A stretch of DNA of 64,000 nt from Candidatus Tumulicola sp. (GTDB lineage: Bacteria; Vulcanimicrobiota; Vulcanimicrobiia; Vulcanimicrobiales; Vulcanimicrobiaceae). Position numbers and translations under genes: made by a program. Under the pieces are notes generated by a model. That model did not search any database, had not been told where the DNA came from, and was given only the letters and a program-made list of their open reading frames with translations. Shown in pieces: positions 7,888 through 22,628 of this stretch. Where the stretch lies: positions 620,001 to 684,000 of the forward strand of contig DASXDT010000005.1 in assembly GCA_036490475.1 (NCBI GenBank), read 5' to 3'. Each line of letters starts with the position of its first letter. Within the stretch, counting starts at the first letter, position 1.

Positions 7888-8577
7888 ATGTTCGTCCTGA
7901 TCGTCGGCGGCGGAAAAGTGGGCTCGAATCTCACCCGCGCGTTACTCAATCAAGGCCACGAAGTCGTCGTGATCGAGAAAGATGCCCGCAAGGCAAAGTC
8001 GCTGGAGCGCCTCGTCGATCGTCAGGTGACCGTCGTCGGCGACGGCTGCGATCCCGCGGTGCTCGAAACGGCCGGCGTCGCTCGAGCCGACGTCGTGGTA
8101 GCCGATACCGGCGACGACGAAGACAACTTGGTCGTCGTGTTGCTGTCGAAGCGCAAATCGAAAGCGCAGTGTATCGCTCGGGTCAACAACCCCGCCAACA
8201 AACTGATCTTCGATTCGATCGACGCTGAAGACCCGGTGATCGTGATCTCTTCGACCGAGCTGATTCTCGACGTGCTGAACCAGCACGTCAATGCCTCCAA
8301 CTGCCGCTCGTTTATGGAAACGATGCACCTGTTCGGCAAAGGCGAGATGCAGTTGTTACGCGTCGCGGTACGCGACACGTCCCCGGTACAAGGCAAGCCG
8401 TTGGGCGATTTGAACCTGCCGCGCAACTCGGTGGTGGTCGCGATCGACCGTCCCGACATGGACTTGCAAATTCCAACCGGCGATACGGTGCTTCATGCCG
8501 GCGACTCGATGATCGTGATCGTGAAGAACGGTGCGGCCGAGCGCATTCGCGCGCTTATCGGCGGTCCGGCAGCCTAA
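7888..8577 (+). CDS. TrkA-type K+ uptake regulator (second of a pair)
   Basis: The 229-residue protein has the same architecture as its upstream neighbour: an NAD-binding Rossmann motif (VGGGKVGSNLTRALL near the start, VVIEKD strand) and a C-terminal RCK_C domain (IPTGDTVLHAGDSMIVIV). Together the two could form the equivalent of one four-domain TrkA. It starts 13 nt after the first gene, behind a duplicated GAGG. Its last 23 nt overlap the end of hypF on the other strand. Confidence 0.88.
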   Translation: MFVLIVGGGKVGSNLTRALLNQGHEVVVIEKDARKAKSLERLVDRQVTVVGDGCDPAVLETAGVARADVVVADTGDDEDNLVVVLLSKRKSKAQCIARVNNPANKLIFDSIDAEDPVIVISSTELILDVLNQHVNASNCRSFMETMHLFGKGEMQLLRVAVRDTSPVQGKPLGDLNLPRNSVVVAIDRPDMDLQIPTGDTVLHAGDSMIVIVKNGAAERIRALIGGPAA

Positions 8578-10798
8578 CCGCGGCGATTGCCGCTTGTCCG
8601 AGCGCGATGCCCCCGTCGTTGGGCGGCACCATCGTATTGAGCCATAAACGCTCGCCGAAGGCTTCGGACAACTGTTCGATCAGCAGCCCGTTTTGAAATA
8701 CCCCACCCGACGCAACGACCGGACGCTTCGTATCGATGGCAGCCGCAGCTTCGACGCACGCCTGCGCGACCGCGCTATGGAACGCGCGCGCGATGTCGCA
8801 CGGCTCGCGACCGTTGCGGCGATCCCGAACGATGCTCCCGAGCAACGGGCGATAGTCGAGGGTGCCATCGCGCAACGGAAACGGATACGCATCGGCATTT
8901 CCGTCGCGCGCTAACTGCTCCACCCACATGGCCGCCTGACCCTCGAACGTCATCTCGCGCGTGAATCCGAGCAAGGCCGCCACCGCGTCGAAGAGTCGGC
9001 CCATCGACGTGGTCGCAAACGTTCGTACGCCGCTGCGCGCCAGCGCGACCGCGGCACCGTAGCGGGGTGGAAACGAAAACGGCGGCGCGATCAGATCTGG
9101 AAGGTCCTCGACCTCGAGCAAAAATCCGGCGGCCGCGGCGACCGGATGCCGTGCGGCGGCGTCGCCACCCGGCAACAGCGCCGGCCGTAGCGAAAGCGCC
9201 CGCACGAATCCGTCGCAGACGCTGCCCGTAAAAACTTCGCCGCCCCAAATCGTGCCGTCGTCGCCATATCCCGTACCGTCGAACCCCAATCCGACGACGG
9301 ACCGGTCCAGCTCGCCGCGCTCGGCCAGCACGCTGGCGACGTGCGCGCGATGGTGCTGCACGGCGATATGTCGAGCGGCCTCGAGTCCCAGCGCATATTG
9401 CGTGGATACGTACTGCGGGTGTAGGTCGTGTGCCACGACGAGTTGCCGCCGATCGACTTCGTACATCGCGCACAGATCGTCGATCGCCGTTCGAAACGAA
9501 CGCGCGACGTCGTAGTGATCCAAGTCGCCGAGATGTTGGCCGGCAAATGCTTGTCCCTCGACGACCAGTACCAACGCATTCTTGAGATCGCCGCCAACGG
9601 CAAGAATCGGCGCGCGTGATGGGAGCGATGCCACGGCGCGCGGTGCGTAGCCGCGACCATGCCGCAAGACGCTCGGACCGTTTGGCCCGACGCGAACGAC
9701 CGAATCGTCCAGACGCCGCGCGATCGGCCGTTCACCGATCAAAAACGCGTCGACGATCCCGTCGAGCCGTTGTCGCGCATCCTCGTCGTCGTAGGCGATT
9801 GGCTCGCTCGAGCGATTTCCGCTGGTCATCACCAGCCACGGCGGCGCGCCCGCGTCGAACAGCGCGTGATGCAGCGGCGTGTGTGCGAGCATCACGCCGA
9901 GATCGCGGTTGTCGGGGGCGACGTCCAGCAATGCGCGTTTGGCCGGCGCGAGGACGATCGGCCGCGCGATCGACGTTAACAACGTATCGATCTCGGGCGT
10001 CGTATGAATCAAGGCGCGCGCGCCGTCGAGGTCGCGCACCATCACCGCGAACGGCCGTTCCTTACGAAACTTGCGTTCGCGAACCGCGCGCACCGCATCC
10101 GGGTTTGCGGCGTCGCACGCCACGTGATAACCGCCGAGACCCTTTATTGCCAGCACCTTGCCTTCGCGTAACAGTTCGGACCCGCGCCGCACGGCATCCG
10201 GGCCGCGCGCCGTTTCAGTCCCATACTCCAGAACGAACTCCGGACCGCACCGCGGACACGCAACCGGCTGGGCGTGGAATCGCCGTTCGAGCGGATCGCG
10301 ATATTCGCGCGCGCAGGGCTCGCACATCGGCCAATCGCGCATCGTCGTGTTTGGCCGGTCGTAGGGCAGTTGCGTGACGATCGTGTAGCGCGGTCCACAA
10401 TTCGTGCAATTGACATACGCGTATCCGAAACGCCGATCGGCCGGGTCGCGCAACTCCGCCAAACAATCGGTGCAGACTGCGAGGTCGGGCGAAACCCGCA
10501 CGCTGACGTCGCCGGTGCGCTGCGTCGCCTCGATGGTAAACTCGGTAAAGGTGCCGGCCGGCGCTTGGCCGATGTCGATCTCGGCGAGTGCAGAGGCAGC
10601 GGGCGCCTCGTCGACCAGCGCCGCGACGAACGCGTCGATGTCGAGATCGCTGCCTTGCGCCCGAATCTCGACCCCGCGCTCGCCATTGCGCACCCATCCC
10701 ACGATCGAATGTCGCGCCGCCAAACGGTAGACGAACGGCCTGAAGCCGACGCCTTGGACGACTCCCGAGATGTGGATGCGCAGCGTGCGTTGCTTCAC
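8555..10798 (-). CDS. hypF: Carbamoyltransferase HypF for [NiFe]-hydrogenase maturation
   Basis: HypF makes the thiocarbamate that becomes the CN ligands of the active-site iron, passing it to HypE. The 747-residue protein has all expected parts in order: acylphosphatase domain (GVVQGVGFRPFVYRLA), two zinc-finger units (CTDC...CTNC and CEPC...CPRC), a YrdC-like domain and a Kae1-like carbamoyltransferase with the metal-binding HHRAHVASVLAE. Length is normal for the family. The GTG at 10798 precedes the acylphosphatase block directly and lies 11 nt after the glutaredoxin-like gene. It is the last gene of the hydrogenase operon and converges on the trkA pair. Confidence 0.95.
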   Translation of the reverse strand: MKQRTLRIHISGVVQGVGFRPFVYRLAARHSIVGWVRNGERGVEIRAQGSDLDIDAFVAALVDEAPAASALAEIDIGQAPAGTFTEFTIEATQRTGDVSVRVSPDLAVCTDCLAELRDPADRRFGYAYVNCTNCGPRYTIVTQLPYDRPNTTMRDWPMCEPCAREYRDPLERRFHAQPVACPRCGPEFVLEYGTETARGPDAVRRGSELLREGKVLAIKGLGGYHVACDAANPDAVRAVRERKFRKERPFAVMVRDLDGARALIHTTPEIDTLLTSIARPIVLAPAKRALLDVAPDNRDLGVMLAHTPLHHALFDAGAPPWLVMTSGNRSSEPIAYDDEDARQRLDGIVDAFLIGERPIARRLDDSVVRVGPNGPSVLRHGRGYAPRAVASLPSRAPILAVGGDLKNALVLVVEGQAFAGQHLGDLDHYDVARSFRTAIDDLCAMYEVDRRQLVVAHDLHPQYVSTQYALGLEAARHIAVQHHRAHVASVLAERGELDRSVVGLGFDGTGYGDDGTIWGGEVFTGSVCDGFVRALSLRPALLPGGDAAARHPVAAAAGFLLEVEDLPDLIAPPFSFPPRYGAAVALARSGVRTFATTSMGRLFDAVAALLGFTREMTFEGQAAMWVEQLARDGNADAYPFPLRDGTLDYRPLLGSIVRDRRNGREPCDIARAFHSAVAQACVEAAAAIDTKRPVVASGGVFQNGLLIEQLSEAFGERLWLNTMVPPNDGGIALGQAAIAAVRLPDRR

Positions 10799-10809
10799 CG
10801 GAACGCTGG

Positions 10810-11049
10810 TCACGCCGGCGGAGGCGCGCTCCCGACGTAACACGAGCGTCCATGCCAGCCGACTTCCAGCACCGTTCCGTCTTCGACCAGCGTCGGAACG
10901 GCGGCCGACGGCGTCATGGCTAATAGCCGGGTTCGGGCGTCTGCGTCCGCGTCGACGTCGTACTCCACAAAAACACGGCCACTCCACTCGAGCTGCTCGC
11001 GCAAATCCGGGGTGTACGGGCAGCTCGCGCTTCCGAATAACTCGAGCAC
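10810..11049 (-). CDS. Glutaredoxin-like small protein (Uxx-star type)
   Basis: This 79-residue thioredoxin-fold protein starts VLELFGSAS, then C10-P-Y-T13, a CxxT active-site-like turn, then FVEYDVD and a cis-Pro segment TPSAAVPTLVEDG; a second Cys lies near the end in GWHGRSC (Cys70). From memory this pattern fits the Uxx-star (seleno)protein group, where the first position is Sec or Cys; here it is Cys. Its GTG follows the SIS-gene stop after one base (TGACGTG). Its position between SIS and hypF suggests a redox role in hydrogenase assembly, but that is inference. Confidence 0.7.
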   Translation of the reverse strand: MLELFGSASCPYTPDLREQLEWSGRVFVEYDVDADADARTRLLAMTPSAAVPTLVEDGTVLEVGWHGRSCYVGSAPPPA

Positions 11050-11050
11050 G

Positions 11051-12250
11051 TCAGAGGAATTCCTCGCCGAGGGCCAGCCCCTCACGCACGATGTGATAGA
11101 TCGTGCCTTGGACTTCTTGAATGCGCGGGATGTAGTCCGAATGCACCACGATGGCGCGATCGGCCAACTCGCGCCGCACGATTTCGCCGCCATCATATCC
11201 GAGCAATGCGACGGTGAGCATGCCGCGCTTCCGCGCCTCTTCGAGCCCGGCGATCACGTTGCGCGATCCACCGCTCGTCGAGAAGGCGAACGCGACGTCG
11301 CCGCGCCGTCCGTGCGCAATAATTTGTCGCACGAACACAACATCGACGCCAACGTCGTTCGAAACTGCGGATAAAATCGCGGGTTCGAGCGAGAGCGACA
11401 GTGCCGGTATCGAAGCCGCGCCGTCTTCGGGCATCACGCAATCCAGCGCGAAGTCGGTCGCATCGGTCGCCGAACCGCCGTTGCCGAAGGCGAGAACTTG
11501 CGCCCCGCGGGCCACGCGCTCGGCCACGGCAACGATCGTATCGGCGATCGTCGCGCTCATCTCGCGCGCCGTGGCCTGGCGCAGGGCACGCGCGTCCCGC
11601 GCTTTGGCCTCGATCGATTCCGCTACGCTGCGGTCGAGCGACTCGTCGGGGCGCTCGCGCGCCTCGCCGAGAAACGGATACAGAAACGAAGCGGCGCCGA
11701 CATCGGTGCCACCGATTTCACGATGCTCGAAATACACGTGGACGCTTTCGTATAGCGTGTGGCCGAGAATCTCGAACAATTCCTGATGCAGATGCGCGTC
11801 GTCGCTGGGCGCGGCGACCGCATAATCGGCGCGATCGCCCGGAAACGCCACGGTCAGCGCGCCTCGTTCGCGCGCGCGATCGAGCACGGCCTGCACTAGG
11901 TCGTCACCCTGCGGCGGCCCTAGACCGACCACGATATCGTCCGGACGGACGACCGCATCGACCCAACGCTCCGGCGCGACGCTTAAATCCATGGCCGGAA
12001 GCGCGCGCTTACCGACGATCACCGGATGCACGAATTCGACCGAAAGATGCTGCGCGTCGGTCGCGTATGGGCCTCGTCCCACGGCCAGCAATCGTCCACC
12101 GCGGTCGAAACGCTCGAACACTCGGCGAGCGGCGCGCGCCAACGGCAGCGCCTCGCGCGCGAAAAATGCGTCGGCAATCGCATCGCGTGCGGCAAACCGG
12201 TCGGCAACCCACGTCGTGAGGCGCGCGCGGCGATCGAGACCGGTCAACAT
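11051..12250 (-). CDS. Tandem SIS-domain protein in hydrogenase operon
   Basis: The 399-residue protein contains two sugar-isomerase (SIS) domains. The second has the full phosphosugar-binding signature AFGNGGSATDATDFALDC and STSGGSRNVIAGLEEAR, like GmhA-type phosphoheptose isomerases; the first has a divergent copy (AVGRGPYATDAQHLSVEF). SIS proteins are frequent but unexplained members of group 1h hydrogenase clusters. The ATG at 12250 overlaps the hypE stop by 7 nt and begins the first domain; the longer open frame is hypE out of frame. A simple carbohydrate role is also possible. Confidence 0.8.
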   Translation of the reverse strand: MLTGLDRRARLTTWVADRFAARDAIADAFFAREALPLARAARRVFERFDRGGRLLAVGRGPYATDAQHLSVEFVHPVIVGKRALPAMDLSVAPERWVDAVVRPDDIVVGLGPPQGDDLVQAVLDRARERGALTVAFPGDRADYAVAAPSDDAHLHQELFEILGHTLYESVHVYFEHREIGGTDVGAASFLYPFLGEARERPDESLDRSVAESIEAKARDARALRQATAREMSATIADTIVAVAERVARGAQVLAFGNGGSATDATDFALDCVMPEDGAASIPALSLSLEPAILSAVSNDVGVDVVFVRQIIAHGRRGDVAFAFSTSGGSRNVIAGLEEARKRGMLTVALLGYDGGEIVRRELADRAIVVHSDYIPRIQEVQGTIYHIVREGLALGEEFL

Positions 12251-13302
12251 ATTCGCGGCAGCGGATCTCCAACGAGCATGTCGACAACGCGCGTTCCGCC
12301 GTAGGCTGTGGTCGCGATCACCATGCCGGCCGGGGCGTCGCGAACCTCGCCGATGCACGCAGCCTGCTCTCCGCCCGGAAGCGCGCGCAAGGCCGCCAGT
12401 GCGGCGTCGGCAACGTTGTCGGCGACGAGAGCGAGCATCTGCCCTTCGTTCGCGATGTGCAACGGATCGAGGCCGAGCAGTTCGCACGCGCCACGCACCT
12501 CGTCTCGCAACGGAACGCGTTCTTCGGAAATTGCGATCGCATGGTGCGAGCCGCGAACCAACTCGTTGAGCGCGGTCGCGACGCCGCCGCGCGTCGGATC
12601 GCGCATCCAGCGCAGTCCGCTGCCGCACGCTTCTAATAACGCGTCCACGAACGGCCAGAGCGGCCGCGTATCGGAATGCAGATCCGTTTCGAAATCTAAA
12701 TCTCCGCGCGCCAGCAAGATCGTGATGCCATGATCGCCGATCGGTCCGGTGAGCAGCACGCGGTCGCCGCTCACGATTCGATCCGGTCCGAGCGACGCTC
12801 GCTGGTCGACGATCCCGATGCCGAAGGTGGTGACGTACAGCCCGTCGGCCATGCCGTGCTCGACGACTTTGGTATCGCCGCCGACGATCGGAACGCCGGC
12901 ACGTGCGGCGGCATTCGCCATGGTTTCGATTTCGGCGCGCAACACGTCGCTCGGGAGACCGGCCTCGACGATCAGCGTGGCCATCAACGCGTGGGCGCGC
13001 GCACCCGACACGGCAAGATCGTTGACCGTCCCGTTCACCGCCAGTTCGCCGATCGAACCGCCCGGAAAGCGCAGCGGCTTGACGACATAGCCGTCGGCCG
13101 TCGTCGCGACGCGCGTTCCGCCCAGCGAAAACACGGCCGCGTCCGAAAGCTGCGCTAACACCGGGTTGGCGAACGCCGGCGCGATCAAACTTTCGACTAA
13201 ACGGCGCGAGGCTTTCCCGCCGGCCCCGTGCGCCATTTCGATCTGCGCATCGGTGAAGCGCAGGCGCGACGCCGGCGCGGCAGCTCGATCCAACGTATCC
13301 AC
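12244..13302 (-). CDS. hypE: Hydrogenase maturation protein HypE
   Basis: HypE receives the carbamoyl group from HypF on its C-terminal Cys, dehydrates it to thiocyanate and passes CN to the HypC-HypD complex. The sequence ends PRIC, the diagnostic tail with the acceptor Cys. Other family blocks are AHGAGGKASRRL near the start, VNGTVNDLAVSGA and MRDPTRGGVATALNEL, as in the PurM/AIRS ATP-binding fold. I chose the GTG at 13302, one base after the hypD stop (TAACGTG), which gives about 352 residues; an ATG at 13341, overlapping hypD, is the alternative. Confidence 0.93.
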   Translation of the reverse strand: MDTLDRAAAPASRLRFTDAQIEMAHGAGGKASRRLVESLIAPAFANPVLAQLSDAAVFSLGGTRVATTADGYVVKPLRFPGGSIGELAVNGTVNDLAVSGARAHALMATLIVEAGLPSDVLRAEIETMANAAARAGVPIVGGDTKVVEHGMADGLYVTTFGIGIVDQRASLGPDRIVSGDRVLLTGPIGDHGITILLARGDLDFETDLHSDTRPLWPFVDALLEACGSGLRWMRDPTRGGVATALNELVRGSHHAIAISEERVPLRDEVRGACELLGLDPLHIANEGQMLALVADNVADAALAALRALPGGEQAACIGEVRDAPAGMVIATTAYGGTRVVDMLVGDPLPRIC

Positions 13303-13303
13303 G

Positions 13304-14422
13304 TTACGCGGTTGCGGCGGCTGGCTCGTCGATGCGTGCATAGCGGTAATACGCAGCGCACGCACCTTCGCTCGACACCATCAACGCGCCAATAGGGTGC
13401 TCGGGATTACATTCTTTACCGAACAACTTGCACTGCGGCGGCTTCAACACACCCTTGAGGATCTCGCCGCATTGCGCGGCCTTGGGATCGGTAACGCGCA
13501 CGCCCGGAACGTCGAAGATGCGCTCCGCGTCCCATGCGGCGAACGCGTCGGAGAGTTTGAGCGCTGACTGGGAGATGAATCCCAAACCGCGCCACTCGAA
13601 GTACGGTCGCAACTCGAACGTTTGCGCCATGGCGCGCAAGGCCGGAATGTTTCCGTCCCACGGTACGATGCGCCGGTATTGGTTTTCGACCTCGGCGCGT
13701 CCCTCGCGCAACTGCACGAGAATCCGCGCGATCGACTCGAGCATATCCAGCGGTTCGAAACCCGAGATCACGATCGGCTTCCCGTAGTCGCGCGAAACGA
13801 ATTCGTACGGCCGGCAGCCGGTGACGGTCGAGACGTGTCCCGGCCCGATGAATGCGTCTAACCGCATGTCGGGCGAATCCAAAATTGCGCGCATCGCCGG
13901 CACGATCGTGACGTGGTTGCAAAAGACCGAGAAATTCGTAATACCAAGTTCTTTGGCGCGCAGCAGCGTCAGCGCGGTCGACGGCGCCGTCGTTTCGAAA
14001 CCGATGGCAAAAAAGCAAACGTGACGATCGGGTTCGTTCTGTGCGATGCGCAAGGCGTCGAGCGGCGAGTAGACCATGCGAACGTCGGATCCCCGGGCCT
14101 TGAACTCGAGCGGCGTGCCCCTCGTTCCCGGAACGCGCATCATATCGCCGAACGCGGTCAAGATGGTACCGGGATGTTCGACGATCGAAAGACCGTCGTC
14201 GACGCGCCCCATGGGTAGCACGCACACCGGACAGCCGGGACCGTGGATGAGCTCGATGTTGTCGGGCAACAAATCTTTGAGGCCGTGACGATAGATCGCG
14301 TGGGTGTGGCCGCCGCACACCTCCATAATGCGGTAATGGCGATCCGGATCGATCTGTCGCTCGATCTCGCGAACGACGTTTCGAATTAACTGCGGATCGC
14401 GATACTCGTCGACGTACTTCAC
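13304..14422 (-). CDS. hypD: Hydrogenase maturation protein HypD
   Basis: HypD is the iron-sulfur scaffold on which the Fe(CN)2CO unit is built together with HypC. The 372-residue protein keeps the signature Cys motifs: EVCGGHTHAI near residue 35, GPGCPVCVLP near residue 62 and the C-terminal cluster region CKLFGKECNPEHPIGALMV plus EGACAAYYRY. Length is normal. Its GTG start overlaps the hypC stop by 4 nt (GTGA). Confidence 0.96.
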   Translation of the reverse strand: MKYVDEYRDPQLIRNVVREIERQIDPDRHYRIMEVCGGHTHAIYRHGLKDLLPDNIELIHGPGCPVCVLPMGRVDDGLSIVEHPGTILTAFGDMMRVPGTRGTPLEFKARGSDVRMVYSPLDALRIAQNEPDRHVCFFAIGFETTAPSTALTLLRAKELGITNFSVFCNHVTIVPAMRAILDSPDMRLDAFIGPGHVSTVTGCRPYEFVSRDYGKPIVISGFEPLDMLESIARILVQLREGRAEVENQYRRIVPWDGNIPALRAMAQTFELRPYFEWRGLGFISQSALKLSDAFAAWDAERIFDVPGVRVTDPKAAQCGEILKGVLKPPQCKLFGKECNPEHPIGALMVSSEGACAAYYRYARIDEPAAATA

Positions 14423-14709
14423 GTAGGCGCCTCGGGCGAATCGGAAAACGCGTAGCCGCGCACTTCTTCCATCGCCGGCATTTCCTCGCCGAGCATCCGC
14501 AGCAGCTCGAGTTGTTCGCGCGCTTGATCCTCTTCAATTCGGCTCATCGCGAAGCCGACGTGAATGAGCACCCAATCGCCGGGGCGTATCCCGGGATCGG
14601 CGATCAAGCCGACGTTAATCGTCCGCCGAACACCGGCGACGTCGACCTTCGCGAACAGCGGATCGTCCGCGTTACACTCGACGATTTGACCGGGTATTGC
14701 CAAGCACAC
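14419..14709 (-). CDS. hypC: Hydrogenase maturation chaperone HypC
   Basis: HypC carries the iron centre from the HypD scaffold to the large-subunit precursor. The 96-residue protein begins MCLAIPGQIVE, with Cys2, the residue that binds iron and the large subunit, and has the VGLIADPGIRPGDWVLIHVGFAM block typical of HypC (named here in two parts: VGLIADPG and GDWVLIHVGFAM). The start is GTG. It overlaps hypD by 4 nt. Confidence 0.96.
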   Translation of the reverse strand: MCLAIPGQIVECNADDPLFAKVDVAGVRRTINVGLIADPGIRPGDWVLIHVGFAMSRIEEDQAREQLELLRMLGEEMPAMEEVRGYAFSDSPEAPT

Positions 14710-14724
14710 GTGACGTCGAACCCG

Positions 14725-14838
14725 CTACATCGCCTCGGATTTGAGGTAACGCACAAGTTCGGGGCCTTGCTGCGCCAACACGACCAATGCGCCCAGGACG
14801 ATCAGCGTCGCCAATCCGCCCGTCCAATTAATTTTCAC
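14725..14838 (-). CDS. 37-residue single-pass membrane peptide (DUF6893-like)
   Basis: A 37-codon frame from GTG at 14838 to TAG at 14725 fills the gap between the maturation protease and hypC. It has one membrane helix (LATLIVLGALVVLA) followed by a polar C-terminus, GPELVRYLKSEAM. From memory this matches the DUF6893 small proteins found at the same position in actinobacterial hydrogenase clusters (hydrophobic helix, then a RYL-type motif near the end). It overlaps the protease stop by 11 nt. It may be a membrane tether or assembly factor for the otherwise soluble hydrogenase; this is inference. Confidence 0.7.
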   Translation of the reverse strand: MKINWTGGLATLIVLGALVVLAQQGPELVRYLKSEAM

Positions 14839-15640
14839 GTTCGCGCTCCTTCGATTCGGTAGTGAGTTCGTCGATGAGCCGTCGCACGGCATCTGCGGCC
14901 GGCACGATTGCGAATCGGACCGGTTCGCTGAGTTCTTCGGTTATTTCCCCCGAATCCGGGTCGGGCACCGTTTCGGGCTCGCAGGTTACGACCAGCGTCT
15001 TGCGCGGCAACGTTCCCAACCGGCGAGCCAGCGCCAGCACGCTCACCGGATCCATGCCGTGCCCTTCGATAGCGCGTGCCGGAAGGTCGTCAATCTCGGG
15101 ATCGATCACGCTGACCGTTCCCGGTGATTCGCCGCGAGCGGCAAGATCTATGAGGATCGCGGCGTCGTACCCGTCGACCAGCGCATACGCTAGATCGAAT
15201 CCACGGATGCCAAACTCGATCGCATCGACGCCGGCGGGAAGCGCAGATTTCTGCAGATTTCGAACGACATGCAGTCCGAACGCATCGTCGCCCAAAAAAA
15301 CGTTGCCGATACCGGCGATCAACACTCGGGCAGGTAGCGCCGCACCGGCGACCGCTTCGACTTCGTTGGGACGAAAGAAAAAACGATGCGCAAGGCTCCG
15401 GCCTTTGCCGAGCGTTCGCGCCGGATCGGCGTCGAGGATGACCGCCAGCGAGACGTTTCCCTCGAGATCCTCGATGACGGCGTCGACGCTCGCTAACCGG
15501 CCGTCTAACCCGCGCGAGATCGGATCCTGCGCAGCCTCTGGCCGCAGCCGCACGACGGTCCCGGCGCGCACGATCGTATCGCCGACGGTGACGCTTTGCA
15601 CGCCCGGGCGCGACAGCTCGTCCCATGCTTCGAGGTTCAC
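14828..15640 (-). CDS. Hydrogenase maturation protease with extra N-terminal domain
   Basis: The C-terminal part (about residues 105-265) is a HycI/HupD-type endopeptidase: RVLIAGIGNVFLGDDAFG holds the first metal-binding acid, a central ALVDGYDAAILIDLA block the second, and GHGMDPVSVLALAR the His. It would remove the large-subunit tail after nickel insertion. The first ~100 residues form a separate small beta-rich domain (GDTIVRAGTVVRLRP, HRFFFRPNEVE) of unknown role. The GTG at 15640 overlaps the upstream stop as GTGA. Total 270 residues, longer than the usual ~160-residue protease because of the added domain. Confidence 0.88.
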   Translation of the reverse strand: MNLEAWDELSRPGVQSVTVGDTIVRAGTVVRLRPEAAQDPISRGLDGRLASVDAVIEDLEGNVSLAVILDADPARTLGKGRSLAHRFFFRPNEVEAVAGAALPARVLIAGIGNVFLGDDAFGLHVVRNLQKSALPAGVDAIEFGIRGFDLAYALVDGYDAAILIDLAARGESPGTVSVIDPEIDDLPARAIEGHGMDPVSVLALARRLGTLPRKTLVVTCEPETVPDPDSGEITEELSEPVRFAIVPAADAVRRLIDELTTESKEREREN

Positions 15641-16596
15641 GGTGCCGCCGGTCCATTCGAGCGCACGGCGCCGTGCAAACGCGCCAGCTCGTGTGGGTCG
15701 AGTTGCAACGAACGATCGAGCAGTTCGCCGGCGCGCGGATCGGTCGCACGAATTTCGTCGCGCTCTGCCTCGGTGAGCGCGCGGATGTTGTGCACGAGTA
15801 GTTCGTCGATTTCTCCCGCGTCGAACCAATCACCCGGACTCTCCGGAGCGATTCGCGGCCGGTCTTCGAGGATGATCGGTGCCGCGAAAACGGTCGTCGT
15901 GTCGGGCTCCGGAAGCGCCAACACCGGCCACAGTCCCTCGGTGCGGCACGCTTCGGCCGCGACGCGCAACGCCTCCGGCGGGTCGACGGTCGAAACGAAC
16001 CCACCCGGGGTCGCATGCGCCACGACGTGACACGCGAGCAACGTCGAGCCTAAGGCATCTTCTCGTCCGGCACCGTTCCATTCCGTCTCGTTGGCGATGT
16101 CGACGCGCAAACGGTAGCCGTTCTGGACCGGTTCGAGGACACACGTCAGGCGTGCGCGCAGCTGGCGGGCAGATCGGTGCAACACGACGCCGCTGCCGGC
16201 GTCCTCATCGCGAACGAACGACTCGCAGACGATCGGGCGCTCGACATTCGCTCCAGGCTCGATATCCGCCGTCGCTTCTTCTTCGATGGCCTCGTCCCAC
16301 GTGACGTACCGGCGATCGTCGATTACTGCTTCATCGACGGACGCGCCGTCGACCAGCACTTGCCGATGGACCAGCCGCAAGAAACGCACCGTAATGCAAA
16401 CGGCCATTGGCCCATCGACGAGCAGGGCATCGAACGCAGCTCGACTGCGATCGGCGGCGACGCCAGCGTACGCTTCCGGATAAATTCCACCGAGCGTGAA
16501 GCGATGCCGGTTTTTTTGCGCGCTTCGCCGGTACGGCCACAGCAGATAGCCTTCGTATAGCACCGTGCGTGCCAACGTTCGCAGCGTGTCGTTCAC
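15637..16596 (-). CDS. Unknown protein of group 1h hydrogenase cluster (319 aa)
   Basis: I do not recognise a fold family for this 319-residue soluble protein. It starts with GTG one base after the previous stop (TAACGTG) and overlaps the protease gene by 4 nt. Visible features are an N-terminal TVLYEGYLLWPYRRSA segment, an Arg-rich central beta region (RFLRLVHRQVLVDG) and an acidic C-terminal third. Proteins of similar size occur at this point in actinobacterial group 1h clusters (recollection), so it is probably an assembly factor specific to this hydrogenase type. Confidence 0.75.
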   Translation of the reverse strand: MNDTLRTLARTVLYEGYLLWPYRRSAQKNRHRFTLGGIYPEAYAGVAADRSRAAFDALLVDGPMAVCITVRFLRLVHRQVLVDGASVDEAVIDDRRYVTWDEAIEEEATADIEPGANVERPIVCESFVRDEDAGSGVVLHRSARQLRARLTCVLEPVQNGYRLRVDIANETEWNGAGREDALGSTLLACHVVAHATPGGFVSTVDPPEALRVAAEACRTEGLWPVLALPEPDTTTVFAAPIILEDRPRIAPESPGDWFDAGEIDELLVHNIRALTEAERDEIRATDPRAGELLDRSLQLDPHELARLHGAVRSNGPAAP

Positions 16597-16597
16597 G

Positions 16598-17254
16598 TTA
16601 CGGCTCGCGTCCCGATAGCAACGCCTCGATCGTCGAGTCCCACGTCGTCAGCCCGTGCTGAGCACGATACGTCTGTAAACGCCGCAACAGGCGGTCGTCG
16701 ATTCGCAGCCAGGCGGTACCGTTGAACACGGCGTCGACGGCCGCGCGCCAGGTCGACACGTCGATGCGGAAAGCGATTTCCGTATCCCACGGCAGCTTGC
16801 CGGCCAGCATGCGTTCGCCGCCCCGATAGAACACGGTTCCAGTCGGCAGAATTTCGACCGGAATGAAGCCGCCCTCGAGCGCGGTTGCGTATTTGACGGC
16901 GACCATGTCGAATTCGTAACCGCACGGCAAAATCACGGTCGTATCTACGCTGTCTTCGAATGCCGGTACGTTGATCGTTCCGCGAGTCCAGACGATCGGT
17001 CCGATCGAGCGATCCCAATCGCCGTCCGAGCCGAATAGCTCGCGCAAACGGCCTCGCTCTGCGTCGCTGTAACGGCGGCGTTCGGCGGCGATTCGAACGT
17101 CGACGTTCAACGCCAATCCCAACACCGAAACGCCCGCCTCGGCCGCGATCGACAGCGTTGCGCGCAGCGACGGCGTTGCAGCATCGGTGGCTGCCTGGAC
17201 GCTGCGCACGCCGAACTGCAGACGCGGCATCGCGCCGAGCGCGGCGTCGATCAC
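16598..17254 (-). CDS. DUF6084-like hydrogenase-cluster protein
   Basis: The 218-residue protein has strong matches, from memory, to the DUF6084 pattern: the RRRYSDAERGRLRELFG segment, a Trp-containing TRGTINVPAF stretch, LPCGYEFDMVAVKY, GTVFYRGGERM and the final LTTWDSTIEALL. It is soluble and lacks Cys pairs, so it is unlikely to bind a metal cluster. The GTG at 17254 overlaps the stop of the 71-residue gene as GTGA; the longer open frame upstream is that gene and DUF5947 out of frame. Role: unknown assembly or electron-transfer partner. Confidence 0.82.
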   Translation of the reverse strand: MIDAALGAMPRLQFGVRSVQAATDAATPSLRATLSIAAEAGVSVLGLALNVDVRIAAERRRYSDAERGRLRELFGSDGDWDRSIGPIVWTRGTINVPAFEDSVDTTVILPCGYEFDMVAVKYATALEGGFIPVEILPTGTVFYRGGERMLAGKLPWDTEIAFRIDVSTWRAAVDAVFNGTAWLRIDDRLLRRLQTYRAQHGLTTWDSTIEALLSGREP

Positions 17255-17466
17255 GGCGGAGAGAGGTTCGGCATCTGCGGAAGAATCGGATCTCGCGCTT
17301 CGGCGTTGATACCGGTCGAGCGCTCCGCCGTCGACGTTCCATTGGGAAGATGGCCGGGCTGCTTCTCGTAGTTTCCGACGCTGTTCCCTTGCTTGATGCC
17401 CTCGACGTGTGACGTCATATCGGGGCTTACGTGTATAAAGGCTCGCAACAGCGATTTCAAATCCAT
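17251..17466 (-). CDS. Small unknown protein of hydrogenase operon (71 aa)
   Basis: This 71-residue protein starts at ATG 17466, which has a strong ribosome binding site, GAGGAG, 6 nt upstream; a TTG at 17472 lies inside that spacer and is less likely. The product begins MDLKSLLRAFIHVSPDM and ends in a Pro-rich tail (ILPQMPNLSPP) with no Cys and no membrane segment. It lies between DUF5947-like and DUF6084-like genes and overlaps the latter by 4 nt. I do not recognise the family; it may be a linker or adaptor peptide for the complex. Confidence 0.7.
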   Translation of the reverse strand: MDLKSLLRAFIHVSPDMTSHVEGIKQGNSVGNYEKQPGHLPNGTSTAERSTGINAEARDPILPQMPNLSPP

Positions 17467-17468
17467 CG

Positions 17469-18098
17469 TCAACTCCTCGTGCGCGCGTCGGCGCGCGGTG
17501 AAAGCTCGTCGAAAAAACGCGCGACCTCGCGCCGTACCGTATCGCCGCCCCCGATACCATGCCAGTGCTTACGAAATAGCGCGACCAATCGGAAACAAAC
17601 GTCGATGCCCGTCAACCAGTAGCGAGGCGGCTTCGCGAGCCGATCGACCAATACGGCTTCTACTTGCGGTTGCAAGGAGTGCAGTGCCGGGTTGGCGTCT
17701 TCGATTTCCGTCCACGAGTCGAGCGGCAGCGTCGACTCGATGCGACCCGCCGGACTCGGATAATATGCCCGAATCGTGCCGTCGCCGCCGCGCACGAAGA
17801 ACGCGAGCTCGACCGGTATGCGCAACGAACGCCAGGCAGATTCGTCGATGTCGATCGCTACAGGACGCCGGCGCTCCGGCACGAGCCGGTACTTGTCGCC
17901 TCCTGCTGCGTCATGATCGAACAGCAGCGCACACGGGCGGCACGCGCACAGTATCTCGCCGGCCGACAGCTCGAGCACGTGACGATGCTGTTCCGGCACG
18001 TTGGCGCCGCATAATTCGCACCGCTCCGGCGCGTCCGTCGCCTGACGACGCACGCCAGAGCCATCGATCAGCGCGCGCAACCGCGACGGAGCGGTCAC
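17469..18098 (-). CDS. DUF5947-like zinc-ribbon protein of hydrogenase cluster
   Basis: The 209-residue protein has a Cys-rich unit near residues 25-60, CELCG followed by an HRHVLEL strand and CACRPCALLFD, which looks like a zinc or iron-sulfur site, then a beta-rich region (YRLVPERRRPVAI, RAYYPSPAGRIES) and a C-terminal Trp-rich segment (YWLTGIDVCFRLVALFRKHW). The pattern fits DUF5947 proteins of group 1h clusters (from memory). The GTG at 18098 overlaps the NifU-like stop as GTGA. It may hold a redox or structural metal centre that interacts with the hydrogenase. Confidence 0.82.
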   Translation of the reverse strand: MTAPSRLRALIDGSGVRRQATDAPERCELCGANVPEQHRHVLELSAGEILCACRPCALLFDHDAAGGDKYRLVPERRRPVAIDIDESAWRSLRIPVELAFFVRGGDGTIRAYYPSPAGRIESTLPLDSWTEIEDANPALHSLQPQVEAVLVDRLAKPPRYWLTGIDVCFRLVALFRKHWHGIGGGDTVRREVARFFDELSPRADARTRS

Positions 18099-18559
18099 AG
18101 TACGACCAGGGAATGCGCCGGTTGCTCTTCGGCCTCGACACGTGCGATCTCGGGTGCTGCCGCGCATATGGCCTCTTCGATCGCCGACTTGAGCGTGACC
18201 GAGGATGCAGCACAGCCGTTGCACGTGCCCGACATACGGACGCGCACTACGTCGCCGTCGATCGCGGCTAACTCGACGTTGCCGCCGTGGGAGGCGATGT
18301 ACGGGCGTACGCCGTCAAGTGCCGCGCCGACGCGGTCCGTCAGCGTGTCCGGATGGAGATCGTGCAATACTAACAGCGGTCCGACGGCTTGGTCGTCGGC
18401 CAACTGGCGGACGAGTTGCGGCGACGATCGCACCGTCGCTATCACCCTCCGGAGTGCACCCCCGTAGAGCTGAAGTAGTCCGGAAATCGCCGCCAGCGCG
18501 CGCTCGTCCTCGACGCCCGCCAGCAGCGCTTCGAGTTCGTCGACATCGTGCGCCGGCAC
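18095..18559 (-). CDS. NifU C-terminal-domain-like Fe-S protein
   Basis: The 154-residue protein has a helical N-terminal part and a C-terminal Nfu domain with the CxxC cluster motif (SGTCNGCAASSVTLKSAIEEAI spans the motif; key residues are the two Cys of CNGC). Such domains bind or transfer a [4Fe-4S] cluster. Immediately downstream of the large subunit, it may carry electrons or deliver clusters to the small subunit. The GTG at 18559 lies 14 nt after the large-subunit stop; the frame upstream of it is the large-subunit gene out of frame. Confidence 0.88.
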   Translation of the reverse strand: MPAHDVDELEALLAGVEDERALAAISGLLQLYGGALRRVIATVRSSPQLVRQLADDQAVGPLLVLHDLHPDTLTDRVGAALDGVRPYIASHGGNVELAAIDGDVVRVRMSGTCNGCAASSVTLKSAIEEAICAAAPEIARVEAEEQPAHSLVVL

Positions 18560-18573
18560 GTACGGAGCCTCGC

Positions 18574-20361
18574 TTAGCCTTGCGGTCCGAAGATCGGCGA
18601 ATGCACCCGTTCGACCGTCTTGCCGTTGCCCACGTACATATGCACGCCGCACGGTAAACACGGATCGAAGCTACGCACCGCTCGCATGATGTCGACGCCG
18701 CGAAAATCGTCCGGGCCGTTCTCTTCGAACAGCGGCGTGCCTTGCACCGCATCTTCGTAGGGTCCCAACCGTCCGTCCGAATCGCGCGGATTGCCGTTCC
18801 AACAGGTCGGCGGCCACGGTTGATAGTTCGCGATCTTTCCCTCGCGAATCACCAAATGATGCGACAGCACGCCTCGCACGGCTTCGTGAAATCCGCACCC
18901 GATGGCTTCCTCGGGAACTTCGAAATCGTTGAACGTCTTGGTCTGGCCGCGTCGAACGAGATCCAGCGCCTGCTCGATGAAATGCACCGCTTGCGCTGCC
19001 GCGTAGGCGACAAAGTACACGCGCGCCCGGTCGCGCTCGAGCGCGTTCGACCACTTCGGAATCTTCCACTCGAACGTCGTCTCGGGAAAGGCGCGCGATT
19101 TCGGCAGGTTGATCTGCACGCTGTGGCCGGTCGATTTCACATATCCGGTGTCGACGATACCGGCCAGCGCGGTCGACCAGAGTCGCGCGAGCGCGCCGCC
19201 GCCGGTGTCGATCGCGACGGTTTCGGCGGTGTCAGGATTCACCCACCGGGGGCTCATCACCCAACTATACTTTCCGCCGTTCAAATCGCGCTTTTGCGGT
19301 TTCGGAAGCGTCGTGACGTTCCACGGATGCCGCCGGTCGACCGGATTTCCCAGCGGGTCGCGCTCGACGAACATCTCCTCGTTCGTCCAATCTTGATAGT
19401 ACGAACTACCCAGCATGATTCGAATGCCGAGGTTGATCTGCACGAGATCGGTCGTCACGAGTTTGCCGTCGATCACGACGCCCGGGGTGACCTTCATCTT
19501 GCGGCCCCAGTCGGTCATGTGCTCGTAACGGTAGTCGCATTCGAACGGATCCTGGAACGATCCCCAGCAGCCCATCGCGATGCGCCGTTGCCCGACTTTT
19601 TCGTATCCCGGTAACGCATCGTAGAAGAAATCGAAGACGTCGTCGTTCATCGGAACGGCTTTTTTGATAAAGTCCAACACGCTCAACAAGCGCGAAAGGT
19701 AATCGGTGAAAATTTGCGGCGTCGCGACGGTTCCGGTACCGCCCGGATACAGCGTCGACGGATGAACGTGCCGCCCTTCCATAAGGCAGAACATTTCGCG
19801 GGTGGTGCGGCTGACTTCCAGCGCCTTTAGGTACAGTTCGCCCGTGAACGGGTTGAAGGCGCGCATGATATCGGCGATCGTTTTGTAGCCGTGAATATGG
19901 CTGTTCGGCGCCTTCGTTTTTTCGGCTTTGGCCAGAACGCTGGGATTCGTCTCTTTCACGATCTGCTCGCAGAAATCGACGAAGACCAGGTTGTCTTGGA
20001 AAATCGTATGGTCGAAGATGTATTCGGCCGCCTCACCCAAATTGAAAATTAATTCGGCCATCGGCGTCATACGAATGCCGTAGGCCATGTTTTGTGCGTA
20101 CACCGAACATGTCGTGTGATTGTCGCCGCAGATGCCGCAGATGCGGCTGGTAATAAACCCCGCATCGCGCGGATCTTTACCCTTCATGAACACGCTGTAG
20201 CCGCGGAACATCGACGACGTGCTCTTGCATTCGACGACTTCTCGATTTTCGAAATCGATCTTGGTGTAGATTCCTAAGTTACCGACGATGCGGGTGATCG
20301 GATCCCACGAGCGCTCGACGAGCTTGCGCGGCTCGGTGCTGACGTCTTCGGCGATGCTCAT
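18574..20361 (-). CDS. hhyL: [NiFe]-hydrogenase large subunit, group 1h type
   Basis: This subunit holds the NiFe active site that splits H2. The four nickel ligands are in RICGICGDNH (Cys75, Cys78, with His82) and SFDPCLPCGVH near the end (Cys568, Cys571, His574). The 21 residues after His574 are the tail expected to be cut by the protease in the operon. The L1 motif followed by TTC and the L2 with PCGVHMY match, from memory, group 1h enzymes of Mycobacterium, Streptomyces and Ralstonia. The ATG at 20361 overlaps the small-subunit stop (ATGA); an earlier ATG lies inside that gene. 595 residues. Confidence 0.95.
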   Translation of the reverse strand: MSIAEDVSTEPRKLVERSWDPITRIVGNLGIYTKIDFENREVVECKSTSSMFRGYSVFMKGKDPRDAGFITSRICGICGDNHTTCSVYAQNMAYGIRMTPMAELIFNLGEAAEYIFDHTIFQDNLVFVDFCEQIVKETNPSVLAKAEKTKAPNSHIHGYKTIADIMRAFNPFTGELYLKALEVSRTTREMFCLMEGRHVHPSTLYPGGTGTVATPQIFTDYLSRLLSVLDFIKKAVPMNDDVFDFFYDALPGYEKVGQRRIAMGCWGSFQDPFECDYRYEHMTDWGRKMKVTPGVVIDGKLVTTDLVQINLGIRIMLGSSYYQDWTNEEMFVERDPLGNPVDRRHPWNVTTLPKPQKRDLNGGKYSWVMSPRWVNPDTAETVAIDTGGGALARLWSTALAGIVDTGYVKSTGHSVQINLPKSRAFPETTFEWKIPKWSNALERDRARVYFVAYAAAQAVHFIEQALDLVRRGQTKTFNDFEVPEEAIGCGFHEAVRGVLSHHLVIREGKIANYQPWPPTCWNGNPRDSDGRLGPYEDAVQGTPLFEENGPDDFRGVDIMRAVRSFDPCLPCGVHMYVGNGKTVERVHSPIFGPQG

Positions 20362-21431
20362 TCGCTGGCTGCCTTTCTGTCGTTCCCCCATCGGGGATCG
20401 CTGCCCGTGGTTAAGACCGGTCCGTTATGCCGCCACGACGGTTCTTCGCTGGCGGTGCGGTTGGTAATCGAACGAAGCATCCGGATGAGCTTGCCGTACG
20501 GCGCGATCAGCGTCGACGAGATCGTCGCGCCGGCCGGTTCGTCCATGAACGGCATGAACTTGTCCGGGAATCCCGGCATCGTGCAGCCGATGCAAATGCC
20601 GCCCACGTTGGGACAGCCGCCAATCCCGACCTGCCAGCCACGCTTGGTAACGTTACAGTTGACCACCGGCCCCCAGCAACCAATTTTTACTTGGCATTTG
20701 GGCGAGTTGTAGTCCATCGCGAAATCGCCTTGCTCGTAGTATCCGGCGCGGCTACAGCCTTCGTGCACCGTCTTTCCGAACAACCATTGCGGACGCTGCA
20801 TGCTATCGAGCGGAATGATCGGCGCGTTGCCGGCGGCCTGGGCCAACACCCACGCCAGCGTTTCCATGAAATTTTCGGGCTGCACCGGACATCCAGGCAC
20901 GTTAACGATCGGAAGTCCGCCGGCCGAGCGAAAATCTGCGCCGAGATAGTCGCCCAATCCCATGCAACCGGTCGGGTTTCCAGCCATAGCATGGATGCCG
21001 CCGTACGTCGCGCACGTACCGGCCGCAACGACCGCCCACGCCCTCGGCGCTAACCGATTGATCCACCAGTTGAGCGTGAGCGGCTCGCCGGTTGCCGGGT
21101 CGTTTCCCATCGACGTCCAGTAGCCGTCACCGCTGATATGTTCGTTCGGTATCGAACCTTCCACGACAAAAATAAACGGCGCGTCGAGTTCGTCGTTGGC
21201 GGCTTGGAAAAACGGTTTGAGAAATTCATCGCCACCGAACGTCGGCGATAATACTTTGTTGTGCAAATGCACTTTGGGGAGGCCGGGAATCAATCCCAGT
21301 AGCACGTCCTCGATCGACGGTTGCGACGAGTTGGTAATCGACACCGAGTCTCCGTCGCAGCTCAACCCCTCGGACGTCCACAGGATGTGAATCTCGTCGA
21401 ATTTGGGGGTAGGGGAGTATGTCGTCGCCAT
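20358..21431 (-). CDS. hhyS: [NiFe]-hydrogenase small subunit, group 1h type
   Basis: The small subunit passes electrons through three Fe-S clusters. In the N-terminal motif EGLSCDGDS, Cys25 is kept but Asp28 replaces the usual second Cys, the Asp/3-Cys proximal cluster known from the crystal structure of the actinobacterial-type Ralstonia enzyme. Other Cys motifs are GTCATYGG, NVPGCPV, HEGCSRAGYY, CWGPVVNC and GICIGCTMPGFPDKF. No Tat signal is visible, so the enzyme is probably cytoplasmic-side. The ATG at 21431 has an AAGAGG ribosome binding site. First gene of the 15-gene unit. 357 residues. Confidence 0.95.
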   Translation of the reverse strand: MATTYSPTPKFDEIHILWTSEGLSCDGDSVSITNSSQPSIEDVLLGLIPGLPKVHLHNKVLSPTFGGDEFLKPFFQAANDELDAPFIFVVEGSIPNEHISGDGYWTSMGNDPATGEPLTLNWWINRLAPRAWAVVAAGTCATYGGIHAMAGNPTGCMGLGDYLGADFRSAGGLPIVNVPGCPVQPENFMETLAWVLAQAAGNAPIIPLDSMQRPQWLFGKTVHEGCSRAGYYEQGDFAMDYNSPKCQVKIGCWGPVVNCNVTKRGWQVGIGGCPNVGGICIGCTMPGFPDKFMPFMDEPAGATISSTLIAPYGKLIRMLRSITNRTASEEPSWRHNGPVLTTGSDPRWGNDRKAASE

Positions 21432-21490
21432 ATGCGCGTACCTCTTGAACGGGATGTTACCCACGACAACGGAATCTACCCGCTCGCAAC
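21432..21490. promoter_or_regulatory. Divergent control region of hydrogenase operons
   Basis: Only 59 bp separate the starts of hhyS (minus) and hypA (plus), so both promoters must lie here or run into the genes. The minus-strand ribosome binding site AAGAGG is visible. I cannot assign -35/-10 hexamers or an operator with confidence. Confidence 0.35.
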
Positions 21491-21907
21491 GTGCACGAAA
21501 TTTCGATCGCAATGGCCATCGTCGAAGAGCTCGAGGAAGCAGCCGTCGAGTCCGGATATACACGCGTTTATGCGGTGCGTTTACAGATCGGCGAACTGTC
21601 GTGCGTGGTAAACGAAGCACTCGAATTCGCGTGGGAACTCGCTGCTGCAGATACGATCGCTTCGGGCGCGCGATTGGAGATCGAGCGGGTCGACGTTGCG
21701 CTAGAATGTCCCGCGTGCGGACGGACCGGAAAGCCGCTCGCACCGAATCACTTCGTTTGTTCGAACTGCAGTTCGGCGTCCGCGACGATCGTTCGCGGAC
21801 GGGAATTGCTCGTCGTCGCCATGGAGGTGGATGATGCCGATGCGGGTGGTGGAGATCGCGCGCTCCATCCTCAAAAAGAACTCGACGCTGGCGGACGGTC
21901 TGCGTAA
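21491..21907 (+). CDS. hypA: Nickel metallochaperone HypA
   Basis: HypA delivers nickel to the large subunit together with HypB. The protein starts (M)HEISIAMAIVEE: the Met and His2 of the nickel site are present. The zinc loop is CPACG with FVCSNC about 20 residues later, a CxxC pair. The product is 138 residues, about 20 longer than usual; the extra tail overlaps the first 77 nt of hypB, so the C-terminus may be disordered. The start is GTG with no strong ribosome binding site. Confidence 0.92.
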   Translation: MHEISIAMAIVEELEEAAVESGYTRVYAVRLQIGELSCVVNEALEFAWELAAADTIASGARLEIERVDVALECPACGRTGKPLAPNHFVCSNCSSASATIVRGRELLVVAMEVDDADAGGGDRALHPQKELDAGGRSA

Positions 21908-22628
21908 GCGATTTTCCGAACAGCGAACGTACGTCTTCAATCTACTGTCGAGTCCGGGCGCCGGCAAAACGACGCTGCTCGAAGCCTCGCTGCGGCGGCT
22001 CGACGAGCGCTATCGTGTCGCCGCCCTGGTGGGCGATCAGGCGACCGAAAACGATGCGGTGCGCCTGCGGCGCAGCGGAGTGCCGGTCAAGCAGATTACC
22101 ACCGGAGGCGAGTGCCGCCTGGACGCGATCATGATCGAAGACGCGCTGACCGGTTGGGAGCCGCCGTCGCTCGACGTCCTAGCGATCGAAAACGTCGGCA
22201 ATCTGATCTGTCCCGCCGAATACGACTTGGGCGAAGACTTACGCGTGGCACTCTTTTCCGTTACCGAAGGCGAGGACAAGCCGCTCAAGTATCCGCTGGC
22301 CTTTAATACGGCCCACGTCGTGCTGATCACCAAGATCGACCTAGCTGCAGCTGCCGAGTTCGACGAACGCGCCGCGCGCCAAGCAATCGAGCGCGTGCAT
22401 CCCGGCGTAGCGGTGCTCGGCGTCTCGTCGCGTAGCGGAGCAGGCATGGACGAGTGGATGGCGTTCCTTACTTCTCGGATCGACGCGAAGCGGTTTCCGA
22501 ACTCCACCGGCGCGACGCCACATGCACACGCGCACGCGCACGACCACCAGCACGCCGATGGTCCCGAGCACGCGCACGTGCACGACCACGCGCACACGCA
22601 CGACCATCCACACGATCACGAGCACTAA
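21831..22628 (+). CDS. hypB: Nickel-inserting GTPase HypB with C-terminal His tail
   Basis: HypB is the GTPase that drives nickel insertion. The P-loop is SSPGAGKTTLLEA near residue 42, with later SIMIBI-class motifs IENVGNLICPAEYDLGE (metal and switch region) and ITKIDL (guanine-specificity). The 265-residue chain ends in 16 His within the last ~36 residues, a nickel-storage tail. In most bacteria such a His-rich stretch, when present, is N-terminal; here it is C-terminal. A GGAGG site lies just before the ATG at 21831; an ATG at 21834 fits the spacing slightly better. It overlaps hypA. Confidence 0.93.
   Translation: MMPMRVVEIARSILKKNSTLADGLRKRFSEQRTYVFNLLSSPGAGKTTLLEASLRRLDERYRVAALVGDQATENDAVRLRRSGVPVKQITTGGECRLDAIMIEDALTGWEPPSLDVLAIENVGNLICPAEYDLGEDLRVALFSVTEGEDKPLKYPLAFNTAHVVLITKIDLAAAAEFDERAARQAIERVHPGVAVLGVSSRSGAGMDEWMAFLTSRIDAKRFPNSTGATPHAHAHAHDHQHADGPEHAHVHDHAHTHDHPHDHEH

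What the first reader, a model, noticed from the sequence alone, without database searches (positions are those of the whole stretch)
15637..17466. Two uncharacterised proteins (319 and 71 aa) fixed inside the hydrogenase operon
Between protease and DUF5947-like lie a 319-aa and a 71-aa protein with no family I recognise, both with overlapping or closely coupled starts. Their tight retention suggests assembly or electron-transfer roles specific to this hydrogenase type, so they are good candidates for undescribed maturation factors.
Basis: inference. Interest (0 to 1): 0.6.

Follow-up and report, generated by a model that had tools for sequence, protein, structure and literature searches.

The report
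Hydrogenase-specific accessory proteins beside HhyL
Two unexplained genes in a bacterial operon for an air-hydrogen-burning enzyme are real and conserved; the larger accompanies this one enzyme type almost without exception and has traded a domain with the enzyme's maturation protease, so it is probably a dedicated assembly factor whose role can be tested directly.

Summary
The two ORFs are real, but a third protein, DUF6084 (16598-17230), lies between them. The 319-aa protein (P319) has no Pfam or NCBIfam family. It is the orthologue of C. necator PHG069, already noted in the literature as an ORF of unknown function. It follows group 1h [NiFe]-hydrogenase almost perfectly: 12/12 plasmids, and 60 of 65 genomes in three phyla against 2 of 533 genomes without it. 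It is absent beside other [NiFe]-hydrogenases.

New here: (1) A roughly 80-residue SH3-like domain (D) is C-terminal on P in one lineage, a separate ORF in another, and N-terminal on the maturation protease in the window. This links P to the protease. (2) The core of P319 resembles the jelly-roll domain of the DISARM helicase DrmA (Z 11; DrmA profile best E 2e-6; profile-profile score above all controls). (3) Its most conserved segments are predicted poorly ordered, and it has no conserved Cys pair. That favours partner binding and assembly over electron transfer.

The 71-aa protein is a genuine coding gene but confined to one HhyL clade, so it is not a general group 1h factor. Most likely function of P319: a dedicated HhyL assembly factor working with the protease (about 0.5). 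No function has been shown experimentally.

The parts
15637..16596 (-). P319: 319-aa group 1h-specific protein (orthologue of C. necator PHG069); DrmA-like jelly-roll core about residues 14-242, C-terminal helices 259-309
17251..17466 (-). S71: 71-aa lineage-restricted small protein with conserved C-terminus (RSTGIN...MPNLSPA in the family)
16598..17230 (-). DUF6084 protein (210 aa from ATG 17230), lies between the two proteins of the finding
   Evidence: PF19562, E 5e-60; start read from sequence
14828..15640 (-). 270-aa hydrogenase maturation protease (HycI/HupD type) with N-terminal domain D; GTG start overlaps P319 stop
15334..15640 (-). domain D (SH3-like small barrel), here fused to the protease; C-terminal on P or a free ORF in other lineages
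17469..18224 (-). DUF5947 protein (start uncertain)
   Evidence: PF19372, E 5e-62
18095..18661 (-). NifU-domain protein (same operon position as PHG066; probably HhyE)
18574..20391 (-). HhyL, large subunit of group 1h [NiFe]-hydrogenase with C-terminal tail after DPCLPCGVH
20358..21428 (-). HhyS, small subunit
14419..14709 (-). HypC, next gene after the protease

Best explanation
P319 is an accessory (assembly/maturation) factor dedicated to group 1h [NiFe]-hydrogenase. Its jelly-roll core is a scaffold. Two very conserved segments that the model leaves poorly ordered (residues 11-40 and 241-270) bind the hydrogenase precursor or another operon protein. The SH3-like domain D, part of the same protein in the other lineage, links this complex to the C-terminal endopeptidase, so that HhyL is held for tail cleavage and assembly with HhyS. 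In the window D has moved onto the protease, so P319 and the D-protease together do the job that the long P-D protein plus plain protease does in C. necator. S71 is a clade-specific, probably extended peptide that binds one of these partners. Shown: specificity for group 1h, operon position, D relocation, absence of a conserved Cys pair. Inferred: binding to HhyL and the protease, and timing of cleavage.
For: 12 of 12 plasmids with group 1h HhyL have P and none of the 113 with other [NiFe]-hydrogenases do. In three phyla 60 of 65 genomes with group 1h HhyL have P against 2 of 533 without. Two of the five misses, both full-length HhyL, are contig ends. Domain D is fused to P, free, or fused to the protease: a Rosetta-stone link between P and the protease. 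No conserved Cys pair (C217 92%, H190 98%, H308 89%), and the most conserved blocks have low pLDDT, Spearman -0.58, p 6e-4. P is absent from every solved structure by profile search, although C. necator HofG is in 5aa5, so it is probably not a stable subunit.
Against: No experiment on any member was found. In three genomes P-D lies upstream of hhyL, away from the protease gene (L128-L130), so P is tied to HhyL more strictly than to the protease. A domain fused to two neighbours may only be a general adaptor. Low pLDDT in a conserved segment may reflect a shallow alignment. Absence from a crystal structure does not exclude a loosely bound subunit.
Confidence: 0.5

Rival explanations
1. P319 is a structural or anchoring subunit of the mature Hhy complex (membrane or quinone docking, oligomer scaffold) rather than a maturation factor.
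For: Same operon as the structural genes and as strictly linked to HhyL as a subunit would be; in L128-L130 it sits directly upstream of the structural genes.
Against: D is shared with the protease, a maturation enzyme; no P-family chain in any PDB entry, including the one that holds C. necator HofG.
Confidence: 0.2
2. P319 carries electrons from Hhy to the respiratory chain (the first reader's other suggestion; PHG067, a different ORF of the same operon, was proposed as electron acceptor).
For: Operon position; a neighbouring ORF was proposed as electron acceptor (PMC6883350).
Against: No conserved Cys pair and no cofactor-binding family.
Confidence: 0.06
3. P319 mainly serves the operon's other unknown proteins (NifU-like, DUF5947, DUF6084), for example as scaffold for Fe-S delivery to HhyS.
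For: NifU-DUF5947-(S71)-DUF6084-P is a fixed block in nearly all loci.
Against: DUF6084 was not found near P in L128-L130; the only fusion seen is with the domain shared with the protease.
Confidence: 0.2

Closest known systems
C. necator H16 pHG1 WP_011153991.1 (PHG069 by operon order), 476-aa protein of the actinobacterial-type hydrogenase operon
   Same: 36% identity over 96% of P319, same place between DUF6084 and the protease; recorded only as ORF of unknown function (PMC4377017)
   Different: Carries domain D at its own C-terminus with a plain 183-aa protease; no S71
DrmA, helicase of the anti-phage system DISARM, N-terminal jelly-roll domain (7s9v/7s9w residues about 148-423)
   Same: Fold and weak sequence match over the whole core: VIA-align Z 11.0 and 10.8, 179-184 aligned residues, rmsd 4.1-4.4; PADLOC DrmA profile hits 11 of 38 members, best E 2.3e-6; hhalign 33.1 against controls of at most 20.6
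   Different: P319 has none of DrmA's helicase domains and has a different C-terminal helical part
hhaABC conserved hypothetical proteins of the Thermomicrobium roseum hhy operon
   Same: Hypothetical proteins encoded with hhyLS and upregulated with them (PMC6776052)
   Different: The paper's names were not matched protein by protein here
HycI/HupD hydrogenase maturation proteases
   Same: The gene after P319 has this protease domain (TIGR00072 E 1e-30)
   Different: N-terminal domain D, absent from the proteases of C. necator, M. intracellulare and other P-D lineages

Membership tests
P319 / PHG069 family of group 1h hydrogenase operons | homology over the core and position between DUF6084 and the protease in an hhy operon | tested here: met
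P319 / PHG069 family of group 1h hydrogenase operons | C-terminal domain D on the same chain (a feature of one lineage, not of the family) | tested here: not met
   in the window D is on the protease
DISARM DrmA | SF2 helicase RecA domains | tested here: not met
   319 aa, no helicase family hit
DISARM DrmA | N-terminal jelly-roll domain shared with P319 | tested here: met
   fold Z 11, DrmA profile best E 2.3e-6, hhalign above shuffled, reversed and family controls but E only 0.002, and noise level against class 1 DrmA alone
HypA-F and other named hydrogenase maturation families | match to a curated family model | tested here: not met
   no Pfam or NCBIfam hit for P319 or S71; isolated weak hits only across family members
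Fe-S or other redox carrier | conserved cysteine motif | tested here: not met
   one 92% conserved and one 75% conserved Cys only in P319, the latter Ser in the window; no invariant Cys in the S71 family
structural subunit of group 1h hydrogenase | present in the solved enzyme | tested here: inconclusive
   no PDB chain matches the P profile while HofG of 5aa5 is found; a loose subunit could be lost
assembly/maturation factor | loss of the gene impairs HhyL processing or assembly | not testable with these tools
   needs a deletion strain
domain D: SH3-like barrels (KOW, Tudor, PetP, NdhS, BAH) | fold | tested here: inconclusive
   best Z 7-8.1 to many SH3-like barrels, none standing out; no Pfam family

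The most novel reading that the evidence does not exclude
The P319 core is a true homologue of the DrmA jelly-roll domain. One domain family would then serve both as part of the chassis of an anti-phage helicase and as the scaffold of an assembly factor dedicated to atmospheric-H2 hydrogenases, where it works with a mobile SH3-like adaptor that evolution has placed on P, on its own, or on the protease.
Probability: 0.45. Interest if true: 0.65.

Novelty: new variant of a known kind. Interest (0 to 1): 0.48.

Why it matters
Group 1h hydrogenases oxidise hydrogen from air. How they mature, and what the conserved unknown genes of their operons do, is not established in the literature read here. 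Strict co-occurrence, a domain exchange with the maturation protease and a fold assignment turn an unknown ORF into a specific, testable hypothesis in a standard laboratory strain (C. necator H16, PHG069). The link to DrmA would also give a relative outside defence systems to a DrmA region for which the structure paper reported no known homology (PMC9142583).

Tried and rejected
Pfam, NCBIfam and PDB sequence searches with P319 and S71 gave nothing usable. Secretins of the injectisome type ranked high in Foldseek but with rmsd near 28 A and TM below 0.2, and Z of 4 or less on realignment: rejected as beta-strand noise. NCBIfam hits of single members (best 0.0009, a beta-lactamase model) were taken as the noise level. 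Domain D weakly hits Pfam VMAP-M0 in 2 of 39 members (E 0.0013); not claimed. S71 was searched for in P-D genomes in six frames as a fused or relocated piece; no credible hit. A DrmA family search of Actinomycetota found mainly ordinary helicases through the RecA part, so DrmA sequences were taken from plasmids instead. P against class 1 DrmA N-termini alone gave a score at noise level (14.2), which weakens the homology claim.

Full report
Observation. The window carries, on the minus strand, hhyS-hhyL-NifU-DUF5947-S71-DUF6084-P319-protease-hypC-hypD-hypE-SIS-hypF, with hypA-hypB divergent. Starts are tightly coupled, including a GTGA overlap between P319 and a 270-aa protease.

Who has P319. 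A scan of GTDB species genomes gave 80 loci at 35-48% identity, nearly all in the order HhyS HhyL NifU DUF5947 (S71) DUF6084 P protease. In the plasmid collection the 12 records with P are exactly the 12 with group 1h HhyL (at least 67% identity); the other 113 records with [NiFe]-hydrogenases have none. Whole-genome profiles: own phylum, 17 genomes with group 1h HhyL, 16 with P, 0 of 132 others; Actinomycetota, 29 with HhyL, 25 with P, 1 of 219 others; Chloroflexota, 19 of 19, 1 of 182 others. I counted HhyL fragments as group 1h by score per residue. Of the five misses, G082 and G178 hold HhyL close to a contig end. G279, G300 and G244 have partial HhyL and were not followed up. The two P without HhyL are G293 (P 958 bp from a contig start, with S71, DUF6084, D, protease and hyp genes) and a fragment in G586. 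Genomes with a hydrogenase scoring about 450-600 bits, apparently a sister group, lack P unless they also have group 1h.

Known literature. C. necator H16 pHG1 has the orthologous operon. By operon order the P orthologue is PHG069; PHG066-069 are listed as proteins of unknown function (PMC4377017). HhyE, a putative iron-sulfur protein encoded downstream of hhyL in M. smegmatis, is required for H2 consumption; [quoted passage not shown] That HhyE corresponds to the NifU-like gene is my inference from gene order. Conserved hypotheticals hhaABC are named in T. roseum (PMC6776052). The library lacks most subscription papers, so earlier remarks on PHG069 may be missed.

Domain exchange. In C. necator, M. 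intracellulare, Methylocystis, S. fungicidicus, a Chloroflexi genome and the window's own relatives P is mostly about 407-476 aa and the protease is a plain one, about 150-190 aa in the annotated records. In the window and most Streptomyces, Nonomuraea, Actinomadura and Solirubrobacterales P is about 300-380 aa and the protease about 240-330 aa (start choices are approximate). A profile of the extra N-terminal part of the long proteases finds the C-terminus of the long P proteins at E 1e-26 to 3e-43. In six loci the domain is a separate ORF between the two genes (L035, L116, L117, L118, L132, L139). On a HhyL tree the three arrangements need 4 changes against 25.5 for shuffled labels. AlphaFold gives D as a small barrel (pLDDT 80) resembling many SH3-like folds at Z 7-8, so only the general fold class can be claimed. 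A shared domain that moves between two neighbouring proteins is classical indirect evidence that they act together.

Fold of P319. The model is good (pLDDT 88, pTM 0.85). Residues 14-242 match the DrmA helicase of DISARM (7s9w/7s9v, residues 148-423) at Z 11.0 and 10.8 with 179-184 aligned residues; the next family is at 6.3. The PADLOC DrmA profile independently hits 11 of 38 family members, best E 2.3e-6, for L036 over 65-295 against profile 90-319; the window's own protein does not reach the threshold. Profile-profile alignment with seven DrmA-like N-termini scores 33.1 over 251 collinear columns. Fourteen other families of the operon score 9.5-18.2, 40 column-shuffled controls at most 20.6 and the reversed alignment 13.8. 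The hhalign E-value is only 0.002 and class 1 DrmA alone scores as noise, so I call homology likely, not proven. The domain is called a jelly roll in PMC12458937, and the DrmA structure paper found no known homologue for regions outside RecA (PMC9142583).

Residues. Invariant positions cluster in YEGYxLxPY...KN..R (11-40) and P..L...P...FD..EI (240-263 and on to 267), exactly where the model is least confident. There is no conserved Cys pair. This suggests partner-binding segments and argues against a redox carrier.

S71. It is under purifying selection: of 2,556 pairs, the 2,355 with pS between 0.1 and 0.6 were used, median dN/dS 0.55, below 1 in 97% of those pairs. The C-terminus is near-invariant and no Cys is invariant. 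It marks one HhyL clade (support 99), with two changes on the tree, and is absent from all P-D genomes tested outside that clade. It therefore cannot be a general requirement of group 1h enzymes. Its role is unknown; an extended peptide bound to a partner is my guess.

Origin. The window's HhyL groups with a Solirubrobacteraceae genome (77% identity, support 100), whereas most relatives in its own family lie in the other clade. Horizontal acquisition of the operon is the simplest reading; it was not tested further.

Verdict.

Noticed in passing
L092 4963-6018, L093 2909-3964, L094 3284-4363, L095 3131-4219: The small-subunit (HhyS/HofK) genes are annotated in these records as 'hydrogenase expression protein HypE', apparently a misannotation (my HhyS profile finds the small subunit at that place in the operon).
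   Followed up: partly
window 11051-12298: A protein of about 415 aa with SIS (phosphoheptose-isomerase-like) domains sits in the hyp part of the operon; SIS-domain genes recur next to hhy operons in many genomes, including C. necator. Role unknown.
   Followed up: no
window 8555-22628: The operon's HhyL belongs to a different clade from that of most relatives in the same family, suggesting horizontal acquisition; L012/L111 (G079) is the other Eremiobacterota locus with S71.
   Followed up: partly
L128, L129, L130: P-D lies upstream of hhyL (of hhyS too in L129 and L130), away from the protease gene, and no DUF6084 was found in the stretch.
   Followed up: no
G214:C4, G219:C1, G248:C1; G525:C2, G479:C23: Several genomes carry hydrogenase large subunits scoring about 450-600 bits against the group 1h profile, an apparent sister group without P319.
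   Followed up: no
G152:C321 and G152:C653: This Chloroflexota genome holds two full group 1h HhyL genes but only one P319 homologue was found.
   Followed up: no
L079 and L080: Streptomyces carminius appears twice with hhy loci giving the same match statistics on two contigs.
   Followed up: no
window 15334-15640: Domain D weakly resembles Pfam VMAP-M0 (PF19916) in 2 of 39 members, E 0.0013.
   Followed up: no
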